This document shows positions 3,701 through 34,224 of a stretch of 51,177 bases of DNA, piece after piece. Below the pieces are notes generated by a model that ran no database searches, had not been told where the DNA came from, and worked only from the letters and a program-made list of their open reading frames with translations. The stretch comes from Bacteroidales bacterium (GTDB lineage: Bacteria > Bacteroidota > Bacteroidia > Bacteroidales > Paludibacteraceae). Position 1 is the first letter of the stretch. Each line of letters opens with the position of its first letter. The stretch is from contig JALFGC010000011.1 of NCBI GenBank assembly GCA_022777485.1, positions 1 through 51,177 on the forward strand, given 5' to 3'. A program made the position numbers and the translations under genes.

Positions 3701-4879
3701 TTAGTCGTTTTTTAGCGTTAATGCTATCAGTCTTTGACCTACTTCCGCATTCTCCATAATGCCTGTAAAGTGCTCTGCCCCCGGTCCGTATGCATAAACA
3801 GGTACCAGCACGCCGGAGTGGCTTTGGTTGCCGAACACACACTCCACCTCTCCGCGTGATATGGAGCCGCCTTGCAGCGTCAAAGCTCCCGTCTCGTGGT
3901 CTGCGGTAACCACCACTAATGTCTCGCCGTCCTCCTCTGCCCATTCCAACACAGCACCCACTGTCCTATCGAAGTCCAACACTTCTTCAAGGGCTGTGCT
4001 GAGTTGATTGGCATGGCAGTAATCGTCAATACAAGACCCCTCTATCATCATCACAAAACCATCGTCCGACTGCAGCAACCGTATGGCGTGCATAGTCTGG
4101 CGCAAAAAGAGATCGCCGCGAGCAGGCGATGCCACATACTCCGAATCGGCAAGCACAGCAAAGACAGGCAGTTCTGCGGCTAGAAACAGGCTATCTGAAC
4201 AACAATACAGGTGGTAACCTTTCTCACCCAACTCGCGGAAGATATTCCTACCGTCTAGACGGTGAGTGAAGAAATACATGCCGCCTCCCGCCACGTAATC
4301 CGCAATGCCATCCAAATAGTCGGCAATGATATCATCATACATATCGCGGTTTTCCGTGTGGCAACAGAAATCAGCAGGTGTAGCATCACATAATCTGCAC
4401 ACCACGCTCACACCAGTGCGTTTGCCAATGGAGTGCGCATAACCGAGTAGAGAAGTCAGTTCTCTCCCATCTGCGTCCGTGCATACGCGTGCTTTGCGCG
4501 TCTTGTACCCTGTCGCCAATGCTGTGCCGCCTGCGCCCGAATCGGTGATGAGCGTGTCAGCACAATAGGTGCGGCTGAGACCTGTGTATGGGAAAGCGTC
4601 CATGTTCAGTTGACCATGATTCACTACCCACGCCGCGCTCACCTGCGTCAGACCCATGCCGTCGCCTATCATGAGGATGATATTCTTTGGACTACGCCCA
4701 ATAGGCACTTCCCGTAGCGTCTTCACCACGGGAATGTAGGTATGGTCTGAGCGATAGGTCAGGCTACGCTGCTCCTCCGTAGAGCAACCGTAGAAACCCG
4801 TTAGCAACATGAGTGCCATCACGATAGGACACACCCTGCGGGCTGCGAACACAATATGACCATTGCTGCGACAACGCAT
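3701..4879 (-). CDS. Alkaline phosphatase family lipoprotein
   Basis: 392 aa; NIILMIGDGMG, TDSGAGGTALATGYKT, VTADHETGAL motifs; lipobox-like LLTGFYGC near the N-terminus. Confidence 0.92.
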   Translation of the reverse strand: MRCRSNGHIVFAARRVCPIVMALMLLTGFYGCSTEEQRSLTYRSDHTYIPVVKTLREVPIGRSPKNIILMIGDGMGLTQVSAAWVVNHGQLNMDAFPYTGLSRTYCADTLITDSGAGGTALATGYKTRKARVCTDADGRELTSLLGYAHSIGKRTGVSVVCRLCDATPADFCCHTENRDMYDDIIADYLDGIADYVAGGGMYFFTHRLDGRNIFRELGEKGYHLYCCSDSLFLAAELPVFAVLADSEYVASPARGDLFLRQTMHAIRLLQSDDGFVMMIEGSCIDDYCHANQLSTALEEVLDFDRTVGAVLEWAEEDGETLVVVTADHETGALTLQGGSISRGEVECVFGNQSHSGVLVPVYAYGPGAEHFTGIMENAEVGQRLIALTLKND

Positions 4880-8771: not shown

Positions 8772-10862
8772 TCATTCGATGCTATACGCCAGCGAGTCGA
8801 GGTCGATGGTTACTCGGACGCGGTCGCCGAGGTAGATGCGGTCGAATACCAAGCGGCTGTCGGTCGCCTCCACGGGGATGTAGTCGCCATAGAGTAGCGG
8901 CATCGAGTTGCGGCGCAGGCGGATGAGGTCTTGCACCTCTTGGCGGAATGCCTGCTCGCGTTCGGTGAGTCCTCCGAAGCGCATCATCTGTCGGTTGTCG
9001 GGGTCGTTGGCTCCTGCCTGTCCGTACTCATCGCCTTGATAGATACAGGGCACGCCCGGGATGGTGAGGTTGATGACCTCAAGCAACATCGCGGCTTTGT
9101 ATGCAGCCTCTTCGCGGGCAGCGTCGCCGTCAGCCGTAACGCCTACCTCGCGCGTCCATCCGGCGCGTTTGTCGTTCTCATCCCAGCGGACAGCACCACC
9201 TGCCAAAGAGATGAAGCGGCACTTATCGTGGTTGCCGGAGATATTTCCCATGGTGTGGTGGGCACCGTAACTTGCCAACGAAGATTCGATGGTTTGAGCC
9301 ATGCGCTTCATAGATTGGTTGGGTTTTCCCAATACATCAATAGCGGTGTGGTAAATGTTAAAATCGAACTGCGCGGGCAGCATACCCGTCTTCACATAGG
9401 AGCCGATGAGTTGGTTGTCGCCGTAGGTCTCTCCAATCATCCAAATATGCCTATCGGGGAAGCGCAATGCCATCTTCTGCCCGAGCATACGCCAGTAGTT
9501 CAAGGGGATGTGCTTGCAAGCGTCGTGTCGGAAGCCGTCGAGGTCGTAGTTCGCCAGCCAGTAGAGGGCGGAGTCGGTCATGGGTTGGCATACCTCTTCG
9601 CGCTCGAGGTCAAGCGTGGGGATGTGGACATCGAACCATGTGGTCAGGCGTGCCTCGTCCCATAACTCGAAGTTGCGGCGTCCATCGGGCAGGATAGAGT
9701 CGGTGTGCCAAGTGGGGTGCTCCTGCAATGTAGGGGACTCGATATGCATATGGTTGGCAACATAGTCGAGCACCACATTCATATTGTGCGCGTGGGCAGC
9801 GTCGAGCATAGCCTTGAACTCCGCTTCGGTGCCGAAACGCTGCTCCAAAACGGTGATATAGATAGGCCAATAGCCGTGGTATCCGGAGAACTTGGTATAG
9901 GGTTTCGTGGGGTCGAACTTGTTGTCGTAGGTGCCGTCGGGCTTCTGTTCGAAGTCGTACTTTCCCCATGCCGTCCACGGGTTCTGCGTGATGGGGGAAA
10001 TCCAGAGCGTGGTGATACCGAGTTCGTCGAACCATCCCTCGTTGATACGCTTGGTGATACCTGCGAAGTCGCCTCCTTGGTAGTCCACGATATCCAGCAC
10101 CTCCGGGGAATTGAGTTTTCGGTCGTTGGTGGTGTTGCCGTTCTCGAAGCGGTCAATCATCAGGGAGTAGAGCACCTGCGCGTTGTCGTCGTGGCGGTTG
10201 AGTTGCGCCACATCGGTAACGGGTACGCCGTCCTGCAAGGGGATAAGCAGGTCATTATATAAATAGGTGTCGTCCTCGGCATAGACTCTGAGGAAAGCGC
10301 GCCCCTTGTTGCATTTCGCCAACTCATGGCTCTCGCTCAGCCGGAGCGTCCACGAGCCGTCGCTATTGGCAGTCCAGAGGTCGTTGTTTAGATTGGTATT
10401 CTGCAACAGCACCATGAAGCGCGGGTTTGCCACGGGTTCTGTGAAGCGGACGGTGAGGGAGCCGTCTTGGTAACTCTCGGAGACCAGCGCGGGCTTAATG
10501 GGCTTGGCGGGCAACACAGGAACGACAATGCCTTCCTTGCCGTCGAACACTAACAACGCCTGGATGTTGTTGTCGTGGTTCACAAGCAGCATGCGCTCAG
10601 GGAGGGCGTTCTCGGCTAATTTAGCACTACCTGCGGGCAGCATCACCTCCAACCGTTCGGTGGCTATCCAATCCAAGTCTGCTACCTGACCATTCTGCGC
10701 CATCAGTAGGGGCAGATAGTCGGTAGTGTAGATTTCGGTGGTGTCCGCCACCATACGAATAGGTTTGATGGGCTCGCCCGTAACAATCTGCTCTACAGGC
10801 GTCTTGGCGCCACAACCGGCGAGCAGCAAAGGAAATGCCAAATAGAAGATGTGTTTATTCAT
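8772..10862 (-). CDS. GH13 alpha-amylase family lipoprotein with N-terminal beta domain
   Basis: 696 aa; lipobox LLLAGC; GH13 motifs DYVANHMH, GFRHDACKHIP, GNHDKCRF, PCIYQGDEYGQAG. Confidence 0.92.
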   Translation of the reverse strand: MNKHIFYLAFPLLLAGCGAKTPVEQIVTGEPIKPIRMVADTTEIYTTDYLPLLMAQNGQVADLDWIATERLEVMLPAGSAKLAENALPERMLLVNHDNNIQALLVFDGKEGIVVPVLPAKPIKPALVSESYQDGSLTVRFTEPVANPRFMVLLQNTNLNNDLWTANSDGSWTLRLSESHELAKCNKGRAFLRVYAEDDTYLYNDLLIPLQDGVPVTDVAQLNRHDDNAQVLYSLMIDRFENGNTTNDRKLNSPEVLDIVDYQGGDFAGITKRINEGWFDELGITTLWISPITQNPWTAWGKYDFEQKPDGTYDNKFDPTKPYTKFSGYHGYWPIYITVLEQRFGTEAEFKAMLDAAHAHNMNVVLDYVANHMHIESPTLQEHPTWHTDSILPDGRRNFELWDEARLTTWFDVHIPTLDLEREEVCQPMTDSALYWLANYDLDGFRHDACKHIPLNYWRMLGQKMALRFPDRHIWMIGETYGDNQLIGSYVKTGMLPAQFDFNIYHTAIDVLGKPNQSMKRMAQTIESSLASYGAHHTMGNISGNHDKCRFISLAGGAVRWDENDKRAGWTREVGVTADGDAAREEAAYKAAMLLEVINLTIPGVPCIYQGDEYGQAGANDPDNRQMMRFGGLTEREQAFRQEVQDLIRLRRNSMPLLYGDYIPVEATDSRLVFDRIYLGDRVRVTIDLDSLAYSIE

Positions 10863-26859: not shown

Positions 26860-27954
26860 TTATATGCTTTGCGCCATGTGCTCCAAGTTGTTGGGGAAGA
26901 GGAGGTCGCGCAGGTGGTAGAACAAGTGCAAGCCTAAGTCTATGAGCAGCGCCACCAGCAGGGTGATAGCCGCACGGAGCAGTGCAAGCCATGCGCTGTC
27001 CAGCGTAGCCAACCACGGAGAGAGCGCCGTTGCCCAATTCATGATAAATGCAAACTTATTGGTTACCAAGTCAAAACTATGCACGCAGAGGATGAGCATG
27101 GAGTTTCTGCCACACCATGTCCAGAAAGGGGCAGGGGCGAACTTCCATCCACGATGTTCGCACCATGTCTGCACTTCCTCTAATGCAGAGAGGAGGTAGC
27201 GGCAGAAGCCGTAGAGCAATAGCGAGCCGCCGCAAGCACCGAGCACCTCCAGCGCATTGGCATGGCAGGTGCGCATGTCTAAATGGGCAGCGGCACCGCC
27301 CCACAAATACCAATAGATGACAGCGAGCCACGCGATGATACTCAGCACCTTAGCAATGGCGGGGATATGTCTTTGGTGGGCAAACCAGCCGATAGCATAG
27401 AAGATAAGCATGCCTATTCCCGGCAGGGGATTCCATGCCATAGGTGCCAGCAAAGGATAAAGCACACTCGCCGTGAAAGAGAGTGCGGTGCATACCAGCA
27501 AGACGCTATATGGGTTCCGAATGCCGCAGCGTAGCAAGAAGAAGAGTTCGCGCGTGATGAAGAGCGCGAAGAGGAACCACAGCGGTCCGCACCATGCCTC
27601 TCCGTAGGGCGTGGCATAGAAATCGCCCGTGCTAATGACAAGACGCACCAACGGCAAGCGATTGAGTGTCTCTTCTCCTGTATAGGCATCCCATATCCAT
27701 GAGATTAGGCACATATAGATGAGTGTGCCGAAATAGGGTACCAGCAACCGCCACGCGTTCTGCCGCGTGCGCTTGCCAAAGTCCTTGATATGCGCTTCGC
27801 CCTTATCGAACAAGCCTGCCACCAAGATGAATAGCGGCATGTGAAAAGAAAAAAAGATGTTCTCTATCTGCCAATGGTTAGAGAAATGAGCAAAGATAAC
27901 CAACAGAATACCAAGACCTTTGATTACATCGTATGTGAGATTACGGGAGTGCAT
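26860..27954 (-). CDS. Acyltransferase family (acyltransferase 3 / membrane O-acetylase type)
   Basis: Start set at MHSRNLTYDVIKGLGILLVIFAHFSNHW (27954). The longer ORF to 28332 reads through a repeat element. Multiple TM segments, FSFHMPLFILVAGLF motif. Confidence 0.85.
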   Translation of the reverse strand: MHSRNLTYDVIKGLGILLVIFAHFSNHWQIENIFFSFHMPLFILVAGLFDKGEAHIKDFGKRTRQNAWRLLVPYFGTLIYMCLISWIWDAYTGEETLNRLPLVRLVISTGDFYATPYGEAWCGPLWFLFALFITRELFFLLRCGIRNPYSVLLVCTALSFTASVLYPLLAPMAWNPLPGIGMLIFYAIGWFAHQRHIPAIAKVLSIIAWLAVIYWYLWGGAAAHLDMRTCHANALEVLGACGGSLLLYGFCRYLLSALEEVQTWCEHRGWKFAPAPFWTWCGRNSMLILCVHSFDLVTNKFAFIMNWATALSPWLATLDSAWLALLRAAITLLVALLIDLGLHLFYHLRDLLFPNNLEHMAQSI

Positions 27955-27965
27955 ATTGATTATTA

Positions 27966-28160
27966 TGACCGCTGTGCTGTTAGACCGCTTTCGCTGAACG
28001 ACCGCTTCGCTGTCTGACCGTTTCACTGTACGACCGCTTCGCTGAAAGACTGATTCAGCATTTGAGACTATATCAGTCTGACAGCGAACGAAGTGAGCGA
28101 TCTTTTGTCTTTCAGCGCGAAGCGCGGTCTGACAGTCGTCAGACGGTCTTGCTGCGGTCT
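27966..28160. repeat. Quasi-palindromic GACCGCTTCGCTG element, copy 1
   Basis: Tandem GACCGC..GCTG units, core GACTGATTCAGCATTTGAGACTATATCAGTC, inverted CAGCG..GCGGTC units; abuts the stop of the 28160-28480 gene. Confidence 0.85.
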
Positions 28161-28480
28161 TACATATTATTCTTATCCATGCAGGGTTGTTCGTCTTTGG
28201 TGCCGTCTGCCTGGTAGGTGATGTCCTTGGGCTCGTTGGCAACGGTGTGTTCCGCGTTCTTGATGACTGTTTGCAACTTGAGCACGGTTTCCTGCTCTGT
28301 ACCCCACAAATAGCCTTCTGTGGTCTTTCCATCGGAATAAACGATGGTATATGCCCAACATTTTGGGGTGGTGTTGTCTAACTTGGTAGCGTCCATGTCC
28401 TTCACACTGACACCATTGGGTTTGCAGGCAAAAAGCACTGCCACTACTGCGCACATAAGTGCTAACTGAATCTTTTTCAT
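28160..28480 (-). CDS. Small hypothetical lipoprotein
   Basis: 106 aa; MKKIQLALMCAVVAVLFAC lipobox signal. Confidence 0.7.
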   Translation of the reverse strand: MKKIQLALMCAVVAVLFACKPNGVSVKDMDATKLDNTTPKCWAYTIVYSDGKTTEGYLWGTEQETVLKLQTVIKNAEHTVANEPKDITYQADGTKDEQPCMDKNNM

Positions 28481-28545
28481 TGTTTTGTTTTTTAATTAGT
28501 TTTATAATAGCAAGAACTTGCGTTATTCTCCGCTTCGTCTCGGCT

Positions 28546-28589
28546 CCTTTTGCCGTCCTTTTGCCGTCCTTTTGCCGTCTTTTTACCGT
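28546..28589. repeat. 11-bp tandem array, CCTTTTGCCGT x4 (last copy degenerate)
   Basis: Units at 28546, 28557, 28568, 28579; followed by further ~11-bp units containing GTCGGCTTA. Confidence 0.9.
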
Positions 28590-28702
28590 AATTGTCGGCT
28601 TATCGTCGGCTTATTATCCATTATTAGTTGATATTAGTTCGTTCCGAACTATCCGCCCGCGACACTGTCGGGGCGTCCCCAGTGAGGCGTCCCCAGTGGG
28701 TA

Positions 28703-30265
28703 TTAGGTGGGGTCGGAGGTGCGGGGAAGTTGGTGCTTGGGTATGCGTTGTGCCGCGCCGATGGCGCCCGTGGGGCAGACGAGACGGCAGAGGTGGCAAC
28801 CCACGCACTTGATACCCACAATATGGGGACGGCGGTCGGCATCGAAGGTGATGGCTTGGTGTCCGCCATCGGCGCAAGAGATGAAACAACGCCCGCAGCC
28901 GACGCAGCGCGTGCGGTCAATCTTGGGGAAGACCATCGTCTCGCGGTCGAGGTCTATGGGGGTTACGAACGAGGGCAGTTCCTCGCCGACGAGTTGCTCC
29001 ACGCGCGCGAGCCCGCGCGCGGACATATATAGTTGTAAGCCTAAGGTAAGGTCATCGATGATACGGTAGCCGTACTGCATGACGGCGGTGCACACCTGCA
29101 CGTTGCGGCAGCCTAACTGTATGAATTCCAGCGCGTCGCGCCACGTCTCTATGCCTCCGATACCGCTGAATTGGATGTTCTTCATCAGGGGGTTCTTTGC
29201 CATCTCGACGATGAAACGCAGGGCGATGGGCTTGACAGCGCGTCCGGACAAGCCTGAGACGGTGCGGCGGTCGGCGACCTCTGCGCGAGGACTCATGGTT
29301 ACGGACTTGATGGTGTTGATAGCCGAGATAGCGTCTGCGCCGGCGAAGAAGGCTCCCATCGCAGGTTCGGTGATACGGGTGATGTTGGGCGTCATCTTAG
29401 GTATGACGGGGATGGAGACTTTGCGCTTGACGTAGGCGGTGTAGAACGTAACCAGTTCGGCGTTCTGCCCCACGTCGCTGCCCATGCCCGCGAGTCGCAT
29501 CTGCGGGCATGAGAAATTGAGTTCCACCGCGTCGGCTCCCGCCTTCTCCGCCATCTTCGCGAGGGTAATCCACTCCTCCTCGGTCTGCCCCATGATACTC
29601 GCCACGATGACCTTTGAGGGGTAGTTCTGCTTGAGTCGGGCGAGGATGTCGAAGTCCACCTCGGCGGGGTTCTCGCTGAGTTGCTCCATGTTGCGCAGGG
29701 TGTAGAAATCGCCCTTGGCGGCGCTGGTGTGCATGGCATCGAAACGGGGCGAGACCTCGCGGATGTCTTGAAGGCTGATGGTCTTGTAGAAGACCCCTGC
29801 CCAGCCGGCGTCGAAGGCGCGGGCGACCATCTCGTAGTTGGTGCAGATAGCGGACGAGGCGAGGAAGAAGGGGTTCTCGCATGGGATACCGCAGAAGTCG
29901 ATGGCGAGGGAGGGGAGGGAGTCTAACAAGGTATTTTCTCCCCGCCCCCTATCCCCCTCCCCGTCCCGACAGGTCGGGATAAACGAAGCGGGGCGGGGGA
30001 GTTGGTTATCTAACTTTTGTTTGCGCTCCTGCTTGTAGGCATCGCGGAGTTCGCGCAGGCGGATGGGGCGGTCGTAGTGGATACAAGCCTGCTCGGCGGC
30101 TTGGAGGTCGCGGTCGGTGCATGGCAGCAGCCACTGCCCTGCCGCGTGGAAGTTATCGAAACGGATAGCACGCACCGCCCGCGCGGGGTCGCCGTGGGCG
30201 CATGCTTGGCTGCAAGGAGCGTTCTCGCACAACAAGCAGCGTTGGGATTCTTCGTGGATGTTCAT
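28703..30265 (-). CDS. NAD-dependent dihydropyrimidine dehydrogenase PreA-like protein with N-terminal PreT-like Fe-S segment
   Basis: Start at MNIHEESQRCLLCENAPCSQAC (30265). DHOD-type barrel (LSLAIDFCGIPCENPFFLASS, ELNFSCPQM) and C-terminal 4Fe-4S (RCVGCGRCFISC, KCVGCHLCRLVCPTGAI). Confidence 0.87.
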   Translation of the reverse strand: MNIHEESQRCLLCENAPCSQACAHGDPARAVRAIRFDNFHAAGQWLLPCTDRDLQAAEQACIHYDRPIRLRELRDAYKQERKQKLDNQLPRPASFIPTCRDGEGDRGRGENTLLDSLPSLAIDFCGIPCENPFFLASSAICTNYEMVARAFDAGWAGVFYKTISLQDIREVSPRFDAMHTSAAKGDFYTLRNMEQLSENPAEVDFDILARLKQNYPSKVIVASIMGQTEEEWITLAKMAEKAGADAVELNFSCPQMRLAGMGSDVGQNAELVTFYTAYVKRKVSIPVIPKMTPNITRITEPAMGAFFAGADAISAINTIKSVTMSPRAEVADRRTVSGLSGRAVKPIALRFIVEMAKNPLMKNIQFSGIGGIETWRDALEFIQLGCRNVQVCTAVMQYGYRIIDDLTLGLQLYMSARGLARVEQLVGEELPSFVTPIDLDRETMVFPKIDRTRCVGCGRCFISCADGGHQAITFDADRRPHIVGIKCVGCHLCRLVCPTGAIGAAQRIPKHQLPRTSDPT

Positions 30266-30281
30266 GGTTGATTTTGGTTTA

Positions 30282-30435
30282 CGACCGCTATCGCTGAACG
30301 ACCGTTTCACTGTCCGACCGCTATCGCTGAACGACCGTACACTGTCCGACTTATTCAGTATTTAATTGTATATCAGTCTTACAGCGCAAAGCGCGGTCTT
30401 GCAGTCGATAGACGGTCTTTTAGCGTCTACGGTCG
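30282..30435. repeat. Quasi-palindromic GACCGCTTCGCTG element, copy 2
   Basis: gaccgctatcgctgaac gaccgtttcactgtcc gaccgctatcgctgaac gaccgtacactgtcc, core gacttattcagtatttaattgtatatcagtc, inverted arm cagcgcaaagcgcggtc. Confidence 0.88.
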
Positions 30436-30449
30436 CAATTAAGCGGTTA

Positions 30450-30881
30450 TTAATCTTCTATTTCGTCCTTGTAGGTGTAGGTTGCTACTTTGACTTCGGG
30501 GTTGCCGCCAAATCGGTAATAAATGGCGATACTCAGGTGGGAGTACCTCTCTTGTACGCAAACGGGGTCGCCGTACTTCTCTTTCACCTCGGCATCGGCA
30601 TCTTTGGCGGCTTGAATGACTGCTTGCTTCACATACTCCTCGTTGTTCTGACGGCGGATAATCACATCGTTATCCCCAAACGACTCGCCCAACTCCAACA
30701 TGTGAGCATTGAAAATCTTTCTCATCTCTTGACTGTTCAAACCCTCCGTTTCGGGGGTCAGTGCGCCGGCAAAACCCTCTCGGCAATAGACAATCGCATC
30801 ACAGGTCTCAGACTTGAAACAACCGGTCATTCCCAGCACTATGGCTACAACGGTAGCCGCAATGAAACATAGTTTCTTCAT
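30450..30881 (-). CDS. Small hypothetical lipoprotein, paralog A
   Basis: 143 aa; LGMTGC lipobox; aligns along its length with the 31015-31452 product. Confidence 0.8.
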   Translation of the reverse strand: MKKLCFIAATVVAIVLGMTGCFKSETCDAIVYCREGFAGALTPETEGLNSQEMRKIFNAHMLELGESFGDNDVIIRRQNNEEYVKQAVIQAAKDADAEVKEKYGDPVCVQERYSHLSIAIYYRFGGNPEVKVATYTYKDEIED

Positions 30882-30905
30882 AATTGATTATTAGTTGATT
30901 ATATT

Positions 30906-31004
30906 TGACCACTTCGTTGCCCGACCGCTCCGCGGTCAGACTTATTCACTATTTAATTGTATATCAGTCTTTCAGCGTCAGCGGTCGGACTGCGATAGCG
31001 GTCA
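30906..31004. repeat. Quasi-palindromic GACCGCTTCGCTG element, copy 3 (short)
   Basis: gaccacttcgttgccc gaccgctccgcggtc agacttattcactatttaattgtatatcagtctttcagcgtcagcggtcggactgcgatagcggtc. Confidence 0.88.
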
Positions 31005-31014
31005 ATAATAAAGG

Positions 31015-31452
31015 TTATTCTGTTTCTTCTTTGTAGATATAGGTTACCACTTTTACTTCGGGGTTATCGGCAAAGTCGTAATAGACCGACATTTTGAGGC
31101 TTTTGAAGTTCTCCTTTACGGTAACGGGGTCGCCGTACTTCTCTTTCACCTCGGCGTCGGCTTCCTTCGCTGCTTGGAGGATGGCTTGCTTCACTTTATT
31201 CTCGTTGGTTTGGCGGCGGATGATGATGCCATCATCACCAAAAGGCTCACCCAATTTCAGCATGTGTTTGTCGAAAATGCTTTTCAACTCACTGTCATCG
31301 AGTCCCGGCGATACAGGCTTGGTAGTGCTGGAGGACCCACTGGAACTCACTCGGCAATAGATGTTTACATCAGATACTTCTGTTGTGAAACAGCCGGTCA
31401 TTCCCAGCAACATTGCTGCCATAGCAGCCACTGCAAAAAATAGTTTTTTCAT
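31015..31452 (-). CDS. Small hypothetical lipoprotein, paralog B
   Basis: 145 aa; shared blocks with paralog A: LGMTGCF, HMLxLGExFGDxxxIIRRQxNE, KQAxxQAAKxADAEVKEKYGDPV, NPEVKVxTYxYK. Confidence 0.8.
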   Translation of the reverse strand: MKKLFFAVAAMAAMLLGMTGCFTTEVSDVNIYCRVSSSGSSSTTKPVSPGLDDSELKSIFDKHMLKLGEPFGDDGIIIRRQTNENKVKQAILQAAKEADAEVKEKYGDPVTVKENFKSLKMSVYYDFADNPEVKVVTYIYKEETE

Positions 31453-31484
31453 AATTGTTTTTGTTTATTTAGTTGATTATATTT

Positions 31485-31612
31485 TGACCACTTTGCTGTC
31501 TGACCACTTCGTTGTCCGACTTATTCACTATTTAATTGTATATCAGTCTTTCAGCAAACGAAGTGAGCGGTCTTTCAGTCGATAAATGGTCTTGCAGCGC
31601 GGAGCGCGGTTT
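31485..31612. repeat. Quasi-palindromic GACCGCTTCGCTG element, copy 4
   Basis: gaccactttgctgtct gaccacttcgttgtcc gacttattcactatttaattgtatatcagtctttcagcaaacgaagtgagcggtc...cagcgcggagcgcggt. Confidence 0.88.
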
Positions 31613-32792
31613 TAATTTGTATTTTGTTGATTATTAAGGCGATAGCGCCGTCGCCTGTTACATTGCAGGCTGTTCCGAAGGAGTCGATGGCGATGTAGAT
31701 GGCTATCATAAGCGCCTGTTGCTCACCCGTGAAGCCCAGCATGCTGCCAAGCAAGCCCAGCGACGCCATCACGCTGCCGCCCGGCACGCCCGGGGCTGCC
31801 ACCATGGTGATGGCGAGCATGAGGACGAAGCCGACTATCTGCCATGCGTCAAAGGGTACGCCCTGCATAAGCATGATGGCGATGGCGGTACCCGTGATTT
31901 TCGCGATAGAGCCGCTCATGTGGATGGTGGCGCAGAGGGGCACCACAAAGCCCGCCACATCGGCGTTCACACCGTTTTGGAGCGTCTGTTTGAGTGTTAC
32001 GGGGATGGTTGCCGCCGAACTGCAGCAGCCCAGCGCCGTGAAGTAAGCAGGAGACATCGTCCAGAGCAGTTTGAAGGGGTTGCGCCTAACGACCGCACCT
32101 GCGACCATGTATTGCAAGATAAGAATCACGACCGTGAGCCCGATAAGGATGGCAATAACTTGCGCAAAGTTCATTAATACCGTGCTTGCCTCGCCCGAGG
32201 CGGTCATGCTCATGAACACACCAAAGATGTAGAGCGGCAACAAGGGGATGATGAGTTTTTGAATCGCCATCACCACAATACTCTGGAACTCGTGGGCAGC
32301 ACTTCTCAGCACACCCTCTGCCCCCTTTTCGGGCATTTTACCGGCAATGAATGCAATGCCTAACCCGATGAGGAACGCCGTGGCAAGCGCCGTCATCACA
32401 TCCAAGAGCGGCGGAATACAGACTTCGAAATAGGGCGGGAAAGCGGGCACCGCGCCCGCAGCCGCTGTCTCGCCTTCGCAAGCGTGGATGATATGCGGGA
32501 AGATAAGCATGCTGCAACCGTAACCGAACAAACCCGAGAGGACAGTCGCCACATAGGCAATGCCCACCGTGAGCAAGAGCAGACGCGATGCGCCCTTGCC
32601 CAAATCGGCGATGGCGGGTGTTACCAAGCCCAAGATAATCAGCGGGATAAGAAAGCGAAGCAGTTGGTCGAACAGGGCGTTGAAGGTGGTGAAGATACGC
32701 ACACCCCAAGCGGGCATGAACAAGCCGAAAGCGATACCCAAGGCAATGGCAATCAGCACACGGACTAAAAGGGGAATACGAGGGATTCTCAT
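31575..32792 (-). CDS. Dicarboxylate/amino acid:cation symporter (DAACS family)
   Basis: 405 aa; ALGIAFGLFMP, AATIPVTLKQTLQNG, GSIAKITGTAIAIMLMQ, ASLGLLGSMLG..DSFGTACNVTGDGA. The 3' end overlaps repeat copy 4. Confidence 0.92.
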   Translation of the reverse strand: MRIPRIPLLVRVLIAIALGIAFGLFMPAWGVRIFTTFNALFDQLLRFLIPLIILGLVTPAIADLGKGASRLLLLTVGIAYVATVLSGLFGYGCSMLIFPHIIHACEGETAAAGAVPAFPPYFEVCIPPLLDVMTALATAFLIGLGIAFIAGKMPEKGAEGVLRSAAHEFQSIVVMAIQKLIIPLLPLYIFGVFMSMTASGEASTVLMNFAQVIAILIGLTVVILILQYMVAGAVVRRNPFKLLWTMSPAYFTALGCCSSAATIPVTLKQTLQNGVNADVAGFVVPLCATIHMSGSIAKITGTAIAIMLMQGVPFDAWQIVGFVLMLAITMVAAPGVPGGSVMASLGLLGSMLGFTGEQQALMIAIYIAIDSFGTACNVTGDGAIALIINKIQIKTALRAARPFID

Positions 32793-32810
32793 GGGATTAA
32801 CAGATGTTTC

Positions 32811-32953
32811 TGACCGCTTCGCTGTCCGACCATTTCATTGTCCGACCGCTGCGCTGAACGAATGATTTAGCATTTGTATATCAGTCTGACAGCGAACGAA
32901 GTGAGTTGTCGTTTGTCTTTCAGCGTCAGCGGTCTGACAGTCGCAAGACGGTT
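32811..32953. repeat. Quasi-palindromic GACCGCTTCGCTG element, copy 5
   Basis: gaccgcttcgctgtcc gaccatttcattgtcc gaccgctgcgctgaac ... catttgtatatcagtctgacagcgaacgaagtgag ... cagcgtcagcggtc. Confidence 0.85.
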
Positions 32954-33099: not shown

Positions 33100-34224
33100 T
33101 CAGTTCTTTATTTTTGTTTTATTTCGCCACTTGGCGGGTGTAATATGCTCTATCTCCTTGAAACGGGCAGTCATAGTACCTGCATCGCCAAAACCGCTAT
33201 GCTCAGCCACCTCGATGATGGTCATGTTGGTGGTACGCAAGAGACGACGCGCCTCGTCCATGCGTTTCTGCAAGACAAGGTCGCCAAAGTGGCAACCGAA
33301 CTCCGTGAGCATCATGCGGGCGAAATATGTGCGGTTGGTGCCCAAGGCGACAATAGCGTCTTTGGAAGTATATCCCGGGTGTAGCCATACCTGCTCCTCG
33401 TCCATCAGCACGCGCACTTTGTCTGCCAGATGCTGACTCTGCAATATCATCTTGTCTGCGTCCACCGGTTGCCCGATGCGTATGGTATATTCCTCTACAT
33501 ATTCTTCCTCATCCACCATCTTTTGCAGATATGGGCGCAGGTCGAAGTTCAGCGCCAGCAAAGCGTAGATGGAAGCCAAGAGCAAGGAATAGATTGTGAA
33601 GAACAGCCATTCGCGACCGCCCCCGTAGATGATGTCGCTGAAAGCACAAGAGAAGATAAACAACATCATCGCGATACACCACACCATGAAATAGCGCAAC
33701 TTTCCCGATGTCTGCATGCCGTATTTGCGTATGATACGCGCCGTATCCACATAACTGATAATAGTAAACCATGTCTGCACACAAAGCACCAAGTCCGCCG
33801 TCTCGCAGCGGAAAAGGATACGCCCATGGTAGACACAATAATATACCCAATGGCTGACCACGCCGATATCAAGCGGGGTAGTGTCCAAATAGATAACCCC
33901 TCCCGGGAGAATGAAGAGGATGAGCGATGACCATAGGAGCGTGGTGATGACGGTGTCCCACTTGCCCATAGATAGTTGGCGGGCGAAAAAAGAATAAGCA
34001 ACCGGTAGTATGATGACACTGACCAGTTGCCTAATCAGCAATCCACAGGTAGGAAGACCATCGTGTTGGAAAGCATAGCATACAAACACCACATTCACTA
34101 TTGTCGCCACGGCGCAGATCAACATATCCACCATGTCGCGCCATGCTTTTACACGCACCTTCACCACTACAGACCATACTATGGCTACCAGTGCAGGGAA
34201 CAATATCAACAAATACCACCACAT
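33100..34224 (-). CDS. AraC-family regulator with N-terminal membrane domain
   Basis: 374 aa; ~6 hydrophobic segments then HTH_18-type domain (RRLLRTTNMTIIEVAEHSGFGDAGTMTARFKEIEHITPAKWR). Confidence 0.85.
   Translation of the reverse strand: MWWYLLILFPALVAIVWSVVVKVRVKAWRDMVDMLICAVATIVNVVFVCYAFQHDGLPTCGLLIRQLVSVIILPVAYSFFARQLSMGKWDTVITTLLWSSLILFILPGGVIYLDTTPLDIGVVSHWVYYCVYHGRILFRCETADLVLCVQTWFTIISYVDTARIIRKYGMQTSGKLRYFMVWCIAMMLFIFSCAFSDIIYGGGREWLFFTIYSLLLASIYALLALNFDLRPYLQKMVDEEEYVEEYTIRIGQPVDADKMILQSQHLADKVRVLMDEEQVWLHPGYTSKDAIVALGTNRTYFARMMLTEFGCHFGDLVLQKRMDEARRLLRTTNMTIIEVAEHSGFGDAGTMTARFKEIEHITPAKWRNKTKIKN

What the first reader, a model, noticed from the sequence alone, without database searches (positions are those of the whole stretch)
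27966..32953. Quasi-palindromic GACCGCTTCGCTG repeat element in five intergenic gaps of one gene run
Copies at 27966-28160, 30282-30435, 30906-31004, 31485-31612 and 32811-32953 share one layout. A left arm of 2-5 tandem ~16 bp units (GACCGCTTCGCTGTC, each itself an imperfect palindrome) is followed by a core GACTTATTCACTATTTAATTGTATATCAGTC, whose GACTnAT/ATCAGTC ends pair. A right arm then carries the units inverted (CAGCGCGAAGCGCGGTC). All five copies have the same orientation and sit between minus-strand genes, and some touch or overlap stop codons. Unit number and sequence vary while pairing potential is kept, which suggests selection on structure. It could be a REP/MITE-like element, a processing or attenuation structure, or a protein-binding array.
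Basis: partly seen in the sequence, partly recalled or inferred. Interest (0 to 1): 0.72.

Follow-up and report, generated by a model that had tools for sequence, protein, structure and literature searches.

The report
Hairpin repeats wedged between neighbouring genes
A gut bacterium of the Paludibacteraceae carries about 70 copies of a small repeat made of tiny DNA hairpins, nearly always squeezed in one direction between the end of one gene and the start of the next, and in its relatives (and a few times in itself) the same hairpins have been written into working proteins without breaking them.

Summary
The five window copies belong to about 70 sites in this ~2 Mb Bacteroidales MAG (the short unit has 129 hits at <=1 mismatch; reversed control 0) and to a family spread through its genus of gut Paludibacteraceae. 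Each full copy, in gene sense, is: stop codon; 1-5 long hairpins; a core hairpin GACTGAT..ATCAGTC; 1-6 minimal hairpins (2-bp stem, GNA loop, 16-bp period); start codon. All 36 full intergenic copies lie between co-directional genes in one polarity, median 4 nt after the stop and 17 nt before the start. Stems vary but stay paired. A sister species (~92% DNA identity) has a perfect empty site and changed unit numbers at most shared sites. The same units sit in frame inside housekeeping proteins (RadA, MiaB, HisS, DapA, PepD, QueE) of relatives, and inside a few proteins of this genome. Best reading: a non-autonomous REP/MITE-like mobile hairpin repeat tolerated at operon junctions, resembling Rickettsia palindromic elements in its invasion of coding genes. 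No Y1 (RAYT-type) transposase was found in the three element-bearing genomes tested. Neither the mobilising enzyme nor any RNA function is shown.

The parts
27967..28159 (-). Copy 1: start-side short units 27967-28044 (5 units), core 28048-28078, stop-side long units 28082-28159; directly follows the TAA of the gene 28160-28480(-), upstream of the acyltransferase gene 26860-27954(-)
   Evidence: CM hit 90.1 bits
30283..30435 (-). Copy 2: short units 30283-30344 (4), core 30348-30378, long units 30382-30435; between lipoprotein-like gene 30450-30881(-) and DHO_dh/ferredoxin-domain gene 28703-30265(-)
   Evidence: CM hit 80.2 bits
30907..31003 (-). Copy 3: short units 30907-30935, core 30939-30969, long units 30973-31003; between the paralogous genes 31015-31452(-) and 30450-30881(-)
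   Evidence: CM hit 79.5 bits
31486..31611 (-). Copy 4: short units 31486-31514, core 31518-31548, long units 31552-31611; the SDF transporter ORF 31575-32792(-) terminates inside the long arm
   Evidence: CM hit 89.9 bits
32812..32953 (-). Copy 5: short units 32812-32856 (3), core 32860-32886, long units 32890-32953; upstream of the SDF transporter gene, in a 307-nt gap after the AraC-type gene 33100-34224(-)
   Evidence: CM hit 85.9 bits

Best explanation
The copies belong to a non-autonomous, REP/MITE-like mobile repeat whose building block is a small DNA hairpin, GAC-C-[stem]-T-N(N)-C-[stem]-T-G (reverse: CA-[stem]-G-N(N)-A-[stem]-GGTC), with units separated by 3 nt. Full copies are inverted arrays of units around a core hairpin. 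Shown: dispersal, architecture, pairing maintained, polarity, presence/absence and unit turnover between sister species, in-frame copies inside proteins. Inferred: the element spreads by copying through single-stranded hairpins recognised by an enzyme supplied in trans that was not found; units then expand and shrink by slippage or recombination. Insertions survive where they do least harm: between the stop and start codons of adjacent co-directional (probably co-transcribed) genes, with stable hairpins after the stop and only minimal 2-bp hairpins before the start so that initiation is not blocked, or in frame and mostly in stop-free sense orientation inside proteins at places that tolerate extra residues. 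Effects on the mRNA (spacing, stability, coupling) are likely side effects, not the reason for its existence.
For: Dispersal: 129 unit hits vs 0 control; covariance model finds ~70 distinct sites, best E 1.1e-25. Genus-wide: 23 of 61 genomes matched, all in one genus, none of the 24 other genera of the order; 97 contig stretches with an exact double unit, nearly all gut Bacteroidales/Paludibacteraceae MAGs. Pairing: 5 pairs with double changes, 0/500 shuffles, slid controls 0.015-0.108 vs 0.200; adjacent units: 83/90 fully paired, stems GC/GC 48, GT/AC 20, AC/GT 8, AT/AT 7, single mismatches 5. Polarity: 36/36 full intergenic copies >E> (p 3e-11); 22 >E> vs 1 <E< in the sister species, part shared by descent. 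C58 and C86 carry copies on both strands, each following its genes. Junction fit: stop-to-element median 4 nt, element-to-start median 17 nt; 0 in divergent gaps vs 20 of 205 gaps without element, p 0.005. Mobility: stop-G-ATG empty site in the sister, three sister elements absent from this genome, unit gain/loss at shared sites. Coding copies: 22 sense vs 2 antisense in-frame in relatives; extra residues against solved homologues in MiaB and HisS; in this genome a ResB/CcsA-type and a TonB-receptor-type protein.
Against: No transposase or other mobilising enzyme identified; no target-site duplication at the one clean empty site, where a 13-nt A-rich leader is also extra, so precise loss in the sister is not excluded. 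Strict polarity is unusual for REPs and MITEs and could reflect function; it is looser in distant relatives (13 >E> vs 5 <E<). The paired stem types recur in several species, so the compensatory events may be few. Gene calls are from a home-made hexamer caller.
Confidence: 0.66

Rival explanations
1. A dedicated cis-acting RNA element: the hairpin array in the polycistronic mRNA is an intercistronic processing, stability or translation-coupling signal, kept by selection in one polarity (strong hairpins protect the 3' end of the upstream cistron, weak hairpins mark the 5' end of the next).
For: 36/36 polarity and placement between stop and start; RNA fold z -5.0 for copy 2; arms can pair over long range.
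Against: G-U versus A-C single mismatches in sense orientation do not clearly favour G-U (12 vs 6 over three sets; 5 vs 12 by another count); the loop rule GNA/GNNA follows the unit, not the transcript strand; the flanking genes in the window are of unrelated kinds; copies are absent from orthologous junctions in a sister species; same units inside coding sequences.
Confidence: 0.18
2. A protein-binding DNA array (nucleoid, gyrase or IHF-type sites like E. coli BIMEs) that organises the chromosome at operon junctions.
For: Regular 16-bp period and tandem units; known roles of BIMEs as protein-binding sites (PMC2817692).
Against: Stem bases vary while pairing is kept, which points to hairpin shape rather than duplex sequence recognition; polarity relative to genes is not required by a binding array.
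Confidence: 0.07
3. Intrinsic terminators or attenuators.
For: GC-rich hairpins directly after stop codons.
Against: Sequence directly shows no T run after the hairpins (GGTC-AAA..); the next start codon follows after a median of 17 nt, leaving little room for a new promoter; elements are also inside genes.
Confidence: 0.04

Closest known systems
REP / BIME with RAYT (Y1 transposase), gammaproteobacteria (PMC2817692)
   Same: Short imperfect palindromes, around 100 or more copies, clustered as inverted arrays, mostly between genes.
   Different: No GTAG tag, no Y1 transposase in three genomes tested, fixed polarity to genes, in-frame copies inside proteins.
CGTC-tagged REPs (PMC3733652)
   Same: REP-like palindromes that apparently lack a dedicated transposase; some reported in Bacteroidetes.
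   Different: No CGTC tag on the units; multi-unit arrays with a distinct core.
Rickettsia palindromic elements (RPE; reviewed in PMC10969869)
   Same: Palindromic repeats inserted in frame into unrelated housekeeping genes as well as outside genes.
   Different: About 150-bp elements of Rickettsiales; here 13-16-bp hairpin units in variable arrays, in Bacteroidales, with no sequence relation claimed.
BrickBuilt MITE of Porphyromonas gingivalis (PMC4596501)
   Same: Bacteroidales; inverted-repeat element with an internal minisatellite predicted to form stem-loops.
   Different: BrickBuilt is always intergenic, 49-591 nt from genes, has TIRs like those of IS5-family ISPg elements and 23-nt repeats; the present element lies 0-19 nt from nearly all stops, has other ends, and enters genes.

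Membership tests
REP (RAYT-associated) | GTAG/GTGG tetranucleotide at one end of each palindrome | tested here: not met
   Inter-unit spacers are GGA, AGA, GTT, TTT, TTA, TAA, TGT etc.; no GTAG at unit ends
REP (RAYT-associated) | Y1 transposase (RAYT) gene in the genome flanked by REPs | tested here: not met
   PF01797 no match in G000, G085, G086; the Y1 hits fetched from relatives have no unit pairs beside them. Caveat: incomplete MAGs
REP (RAYT-associated) | Many copies of short palindromes, mainly extragenic | tested here: met
   129 unit hits, ~70 sites; full copies intergenic with few exceptions in G000
CGTC REP | CGTC tag at one end of each unit | tested here: not met
   Unit ends are GACC../..CTG with variable 3-nt spacers
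MITE | Short non-coding element with terminal inverted repeats and insertion polymorphism | tested here: met
   GACCG...CGGTC ends, arms inverted; empty site and absent orthologous copies
MITE | Target-site duplication | tested here: not met
   None at the one clean empty site; one site only
MITE | TIRs match an autonomous IS in the genome | not tested
   Only the Y1 family was searched for; other transposase classes were not
Rickettsia palindromic element | In-frame insertion into unrelated protein-coding genes | tested here: met
Rickettsia palindromic element | Sequence homology to an RPE family | not tested
   No RPE sequences were compared; no homology is claimed
Described RNA family (Rfam 15) | Covariance-model match | tested here: not met
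   No match at any of the five copies up to E 1

The most novel reading that the evidence does not exclude
A mobile element with an insertion mechanism polarised by transcription or translation: it inserts specifically at stop/start junctions of polycistronic operons, in one orientation (for example on the single strand exposed behind RNA polymerase, or through an RNA intermediate), and so acts as an operon-junction-specific mobile spacer.
Probability: 0.1. Interest if true: 0.85.

Novelty: new variant of a known kind. Interest (0 to 1): 0.6.

Why it matters
Palindromic repeats written in frame into housekeeping proteins are known as a speciality of Rickettsia. Here the same phenomenon appears in another phylum, with many more species to compare, and alongside a strictly polarised operon-junction form. 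That makes it possible to test why palindromic repeats are tolerated in coding sequence, whether orientation comes from the insertion mechanism or from selection, and whether junction hairpins alter operon expression.

Tried and rejected
Rfam scans: no family at the copies, only chance eukaryotic models elsewhere. RAYT/Y1 transposase: not found in three element-bearing genomes; Y1 genes in relatives not flanked by unit pairs. sRNA or riboswitch for a particular pathway: no specific gene association seen in the window. Integron attC array: considered and rejected, since copies lie on dozens of contigs between ordinary genes; not tested by motif search. Replication-fork orientation as the cause of polarity: rejected because contigs C58 and C86 carry both orientations, each following its genes. 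Wobble test for RNA versus DNA selection: inconclusive. Ortholog search with the SDF protein: relatives too divergent (at most 48% identity) for gap comparison, so the sister MAG was used. Literature: no paper held contains the unit sequence; none found describing it in Bacteroidales.

Full report
What is there. The window lies on contig C70 of a 1.97-Mb, 108-contig genome. The five copies are as described, between minus-strand genes. Read in gene sense each is: stop codon; long hairpin units such as GACCGCGCTTCGCGCTG, GACCGTCTAACGACTG, GACCGCTGACGCTG; a core GACTGATATA..TAAATCAGTC; short units GGACAGCGAAGCGGTC; an A-rich leader; ATG. Each unit can fold by itself: GAC, a C.T (or A.G) mismatch, a 2-6 bp stem, a 3-4 nt loop, then the other half. 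In full copies the stop-side units have 3-6 bp stems in 67 of 84 cases, the start-side units 2-bp stems in 84 of 91. The short unit contains d(GCGAAGC), known from the literature as an extraordinarily stable DNA mini-hairpin (PMC10527192 came up for this sequence; structural details are from my own knowledge).

More than chance, and dispersed. The unit has 14 window hits against 1.26 expected and 129 genome hits with a reversed control of 0. A covariance model built from 15 copies returns 111 hits at E <= 0.1, about 70 distinct sites after the weaker opposite-strand hit of each palindrome is removed. Among 61 genomes, 23 of the genus match and none of the 24 other genera of the order. An exact double-unit pattern hits 97 stretches in GTDB genomes, nearly all gut Bacteroidales/Paludibacteraceae MAGs, with a few Flavobacteriales and Saprospiraceae.

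Structure is kept. On the 15-copy alignment, 5 pairs have changes on both sides and the covariation score is 0.200 against 0.126 in shuffles (0/500) and 0.015-0.108 in slid controls. Among all CA-NN-NNN-NN-GGTC strings in the stretches held from the genome, the four commonest stems are the fully complementary GC/GC (102), GT/AC (26), AC/GT (14), AT/AT (8). Among units adjacent to another unit, 83 of 90 are fully paired, 73 of 80 in the sister and 313 of 325 in other species. The conserved mismatch argues against simple quasipalindrome correction. Caveat: the same four stem types occur in all sets, so copying of a few old unit types explains part of the count.

Position and polarity. I called genes with a hexamer model trained on this genome and placed the sites. 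The 36 best intergenic copies are all in co-directional gaps with the long arm at the stop and the short arm at the start. Eight weaker <E< sites score as one-armed or degenerate arrays; the one I read in full (C62) is a long arm following a stop. Distances are short: stop to first unit 0-19 nt in all but one, median 4; last unit to start codon median 17. No element gap is divergent, against 20 of 205 other gaps in the same stretches (p 0.005). Contigs C58 and C86 hold copies on both strands, each following its genes. In the sister genome 22 of 25 sites are >E>. In more distant relatives the bias is weaker (13 >E> vs 5 <E<).

Presence, absence and turnover. The sister genome G085 (CAMFEN01, about 92% identical over 55 kb aligned) shares most comparable junction copies but with unit insertions, losses and replacements. 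At C104 this genome has TGA-G-TTA[element]AAAAGAGTTAATC-ATG where the sister has TAA-G-ATG. Three sister copies are missing at the orthologous junctions here, replaced by short or unrelated spacers. So copies come and go on a short time scale.

Inside proteins. In relatives, arrays flanked by coding sequence on both sides are in frame in sense orientation 22 times and in antisense twice. The peptides read like QRSGLSAKRSVSEAVC. The hosts are RadA, beta-Ala-His dipeptidase, MiaB, QueE, DapA, HisS, a BglX-like glucosidase, a DEAD-box helicase and AroA-like proteins. Against solved homologues the array adds 11 residues in MiaB (7mjv) and about 9-13 in HisS (6nhi). In RadA it occupies a linker that is variable across the genus and filled with other sequences elsewhere. 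In this genome arrays lie in frame in a ResB/cytochrome-c-assembly protein, a TonB-receptor-type protein and, antisense, an erythronate-4-phosphate-dehydrogenase-like protein. In the window, the SDF transporter ORF ends inside copy 4.

Mechanism. I favour a non-autonomous mobile hairpin repeat. Dispersal, turnover and the empty site need copying; the conserved hairpin with GNA-type loops, irrespective of the strand transcribed, suggests recognition as DNA; polarity and placement are explained most simply by purifying selection: stable hairpins are tolerated after a stop, only minimal ones before a start, and the CAG..GGTC strand is mostly stop-free in frame. The enzyme is unknown: no Y1 transposase match in this genome, the sister, or a third carrier. 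An RNA-level role in operons is the main rival; the wobble test does not decide.

Known kinds. It works like REPs and MITEs, and in coding genes like Rickettsia palindromic elements (PMC10969869). It fails the GTAG-tag and RAYT tests of REPs (PMC2817692), lacks the CGTC tag (PMC3733652), and differs from the Bacteroidales MITE BrickBuilt, which is always 49-591 nt from genes (PMC4596501). I found no description of it in the held literature. I file it as a new family, a new variant of a known kind.

Noticed in passing
L078:1457-1617, 4131-4291, 9194-9348; L081:4020-4158; L252:2309-2558; L248:4612-4722 and others: A second, unrelated ~110-nt repeat (CTCTGCAAG..CTTGCAGAG, in solo copies ended by CTCCG..AAATCC / GGATTT..CGGAG) occurs alone and nested in the core loop of many hairpin arrays, once as a tandem pair; no Rfam match.
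   Followed up: partly
window ~29963-29985; also inside L078, L085, L257: A third palindrome, TCCCGAC..GTCGGGA(TAAA), is inserted in hairpin loops and in the window inside the DHO_dh/ferredoxin gene.
   Followed up: no
sister genome G085, L346 and L352 (sites 2 and 25): AGCAGGCGAGGACGCCTGCGTACCCGG, another palindromic repeat, is nested between units in the sister species.
   Followed up: no
radA of the genus, L387-L416: The linker after the RadA zinc finger is a hot spot: different species fill it with different repeat-like sequences.
   Followed up: partly
L150:5893-7110: A GGGP-synthase-like gene and tadA read as one open frame through an array, a possible gene fusion made by the repeat.
   Followed up: no
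window 30450-30881 and 31015-31452: Tandem paralogous small lipoprotein-like genes, 56% identical, without a Pfam match, each followed by a copy of the element.
   Followed up: partly
L364:1802-2018: A cobalamin riboswitch lies near one array in the sister genome.
   Followed up: no
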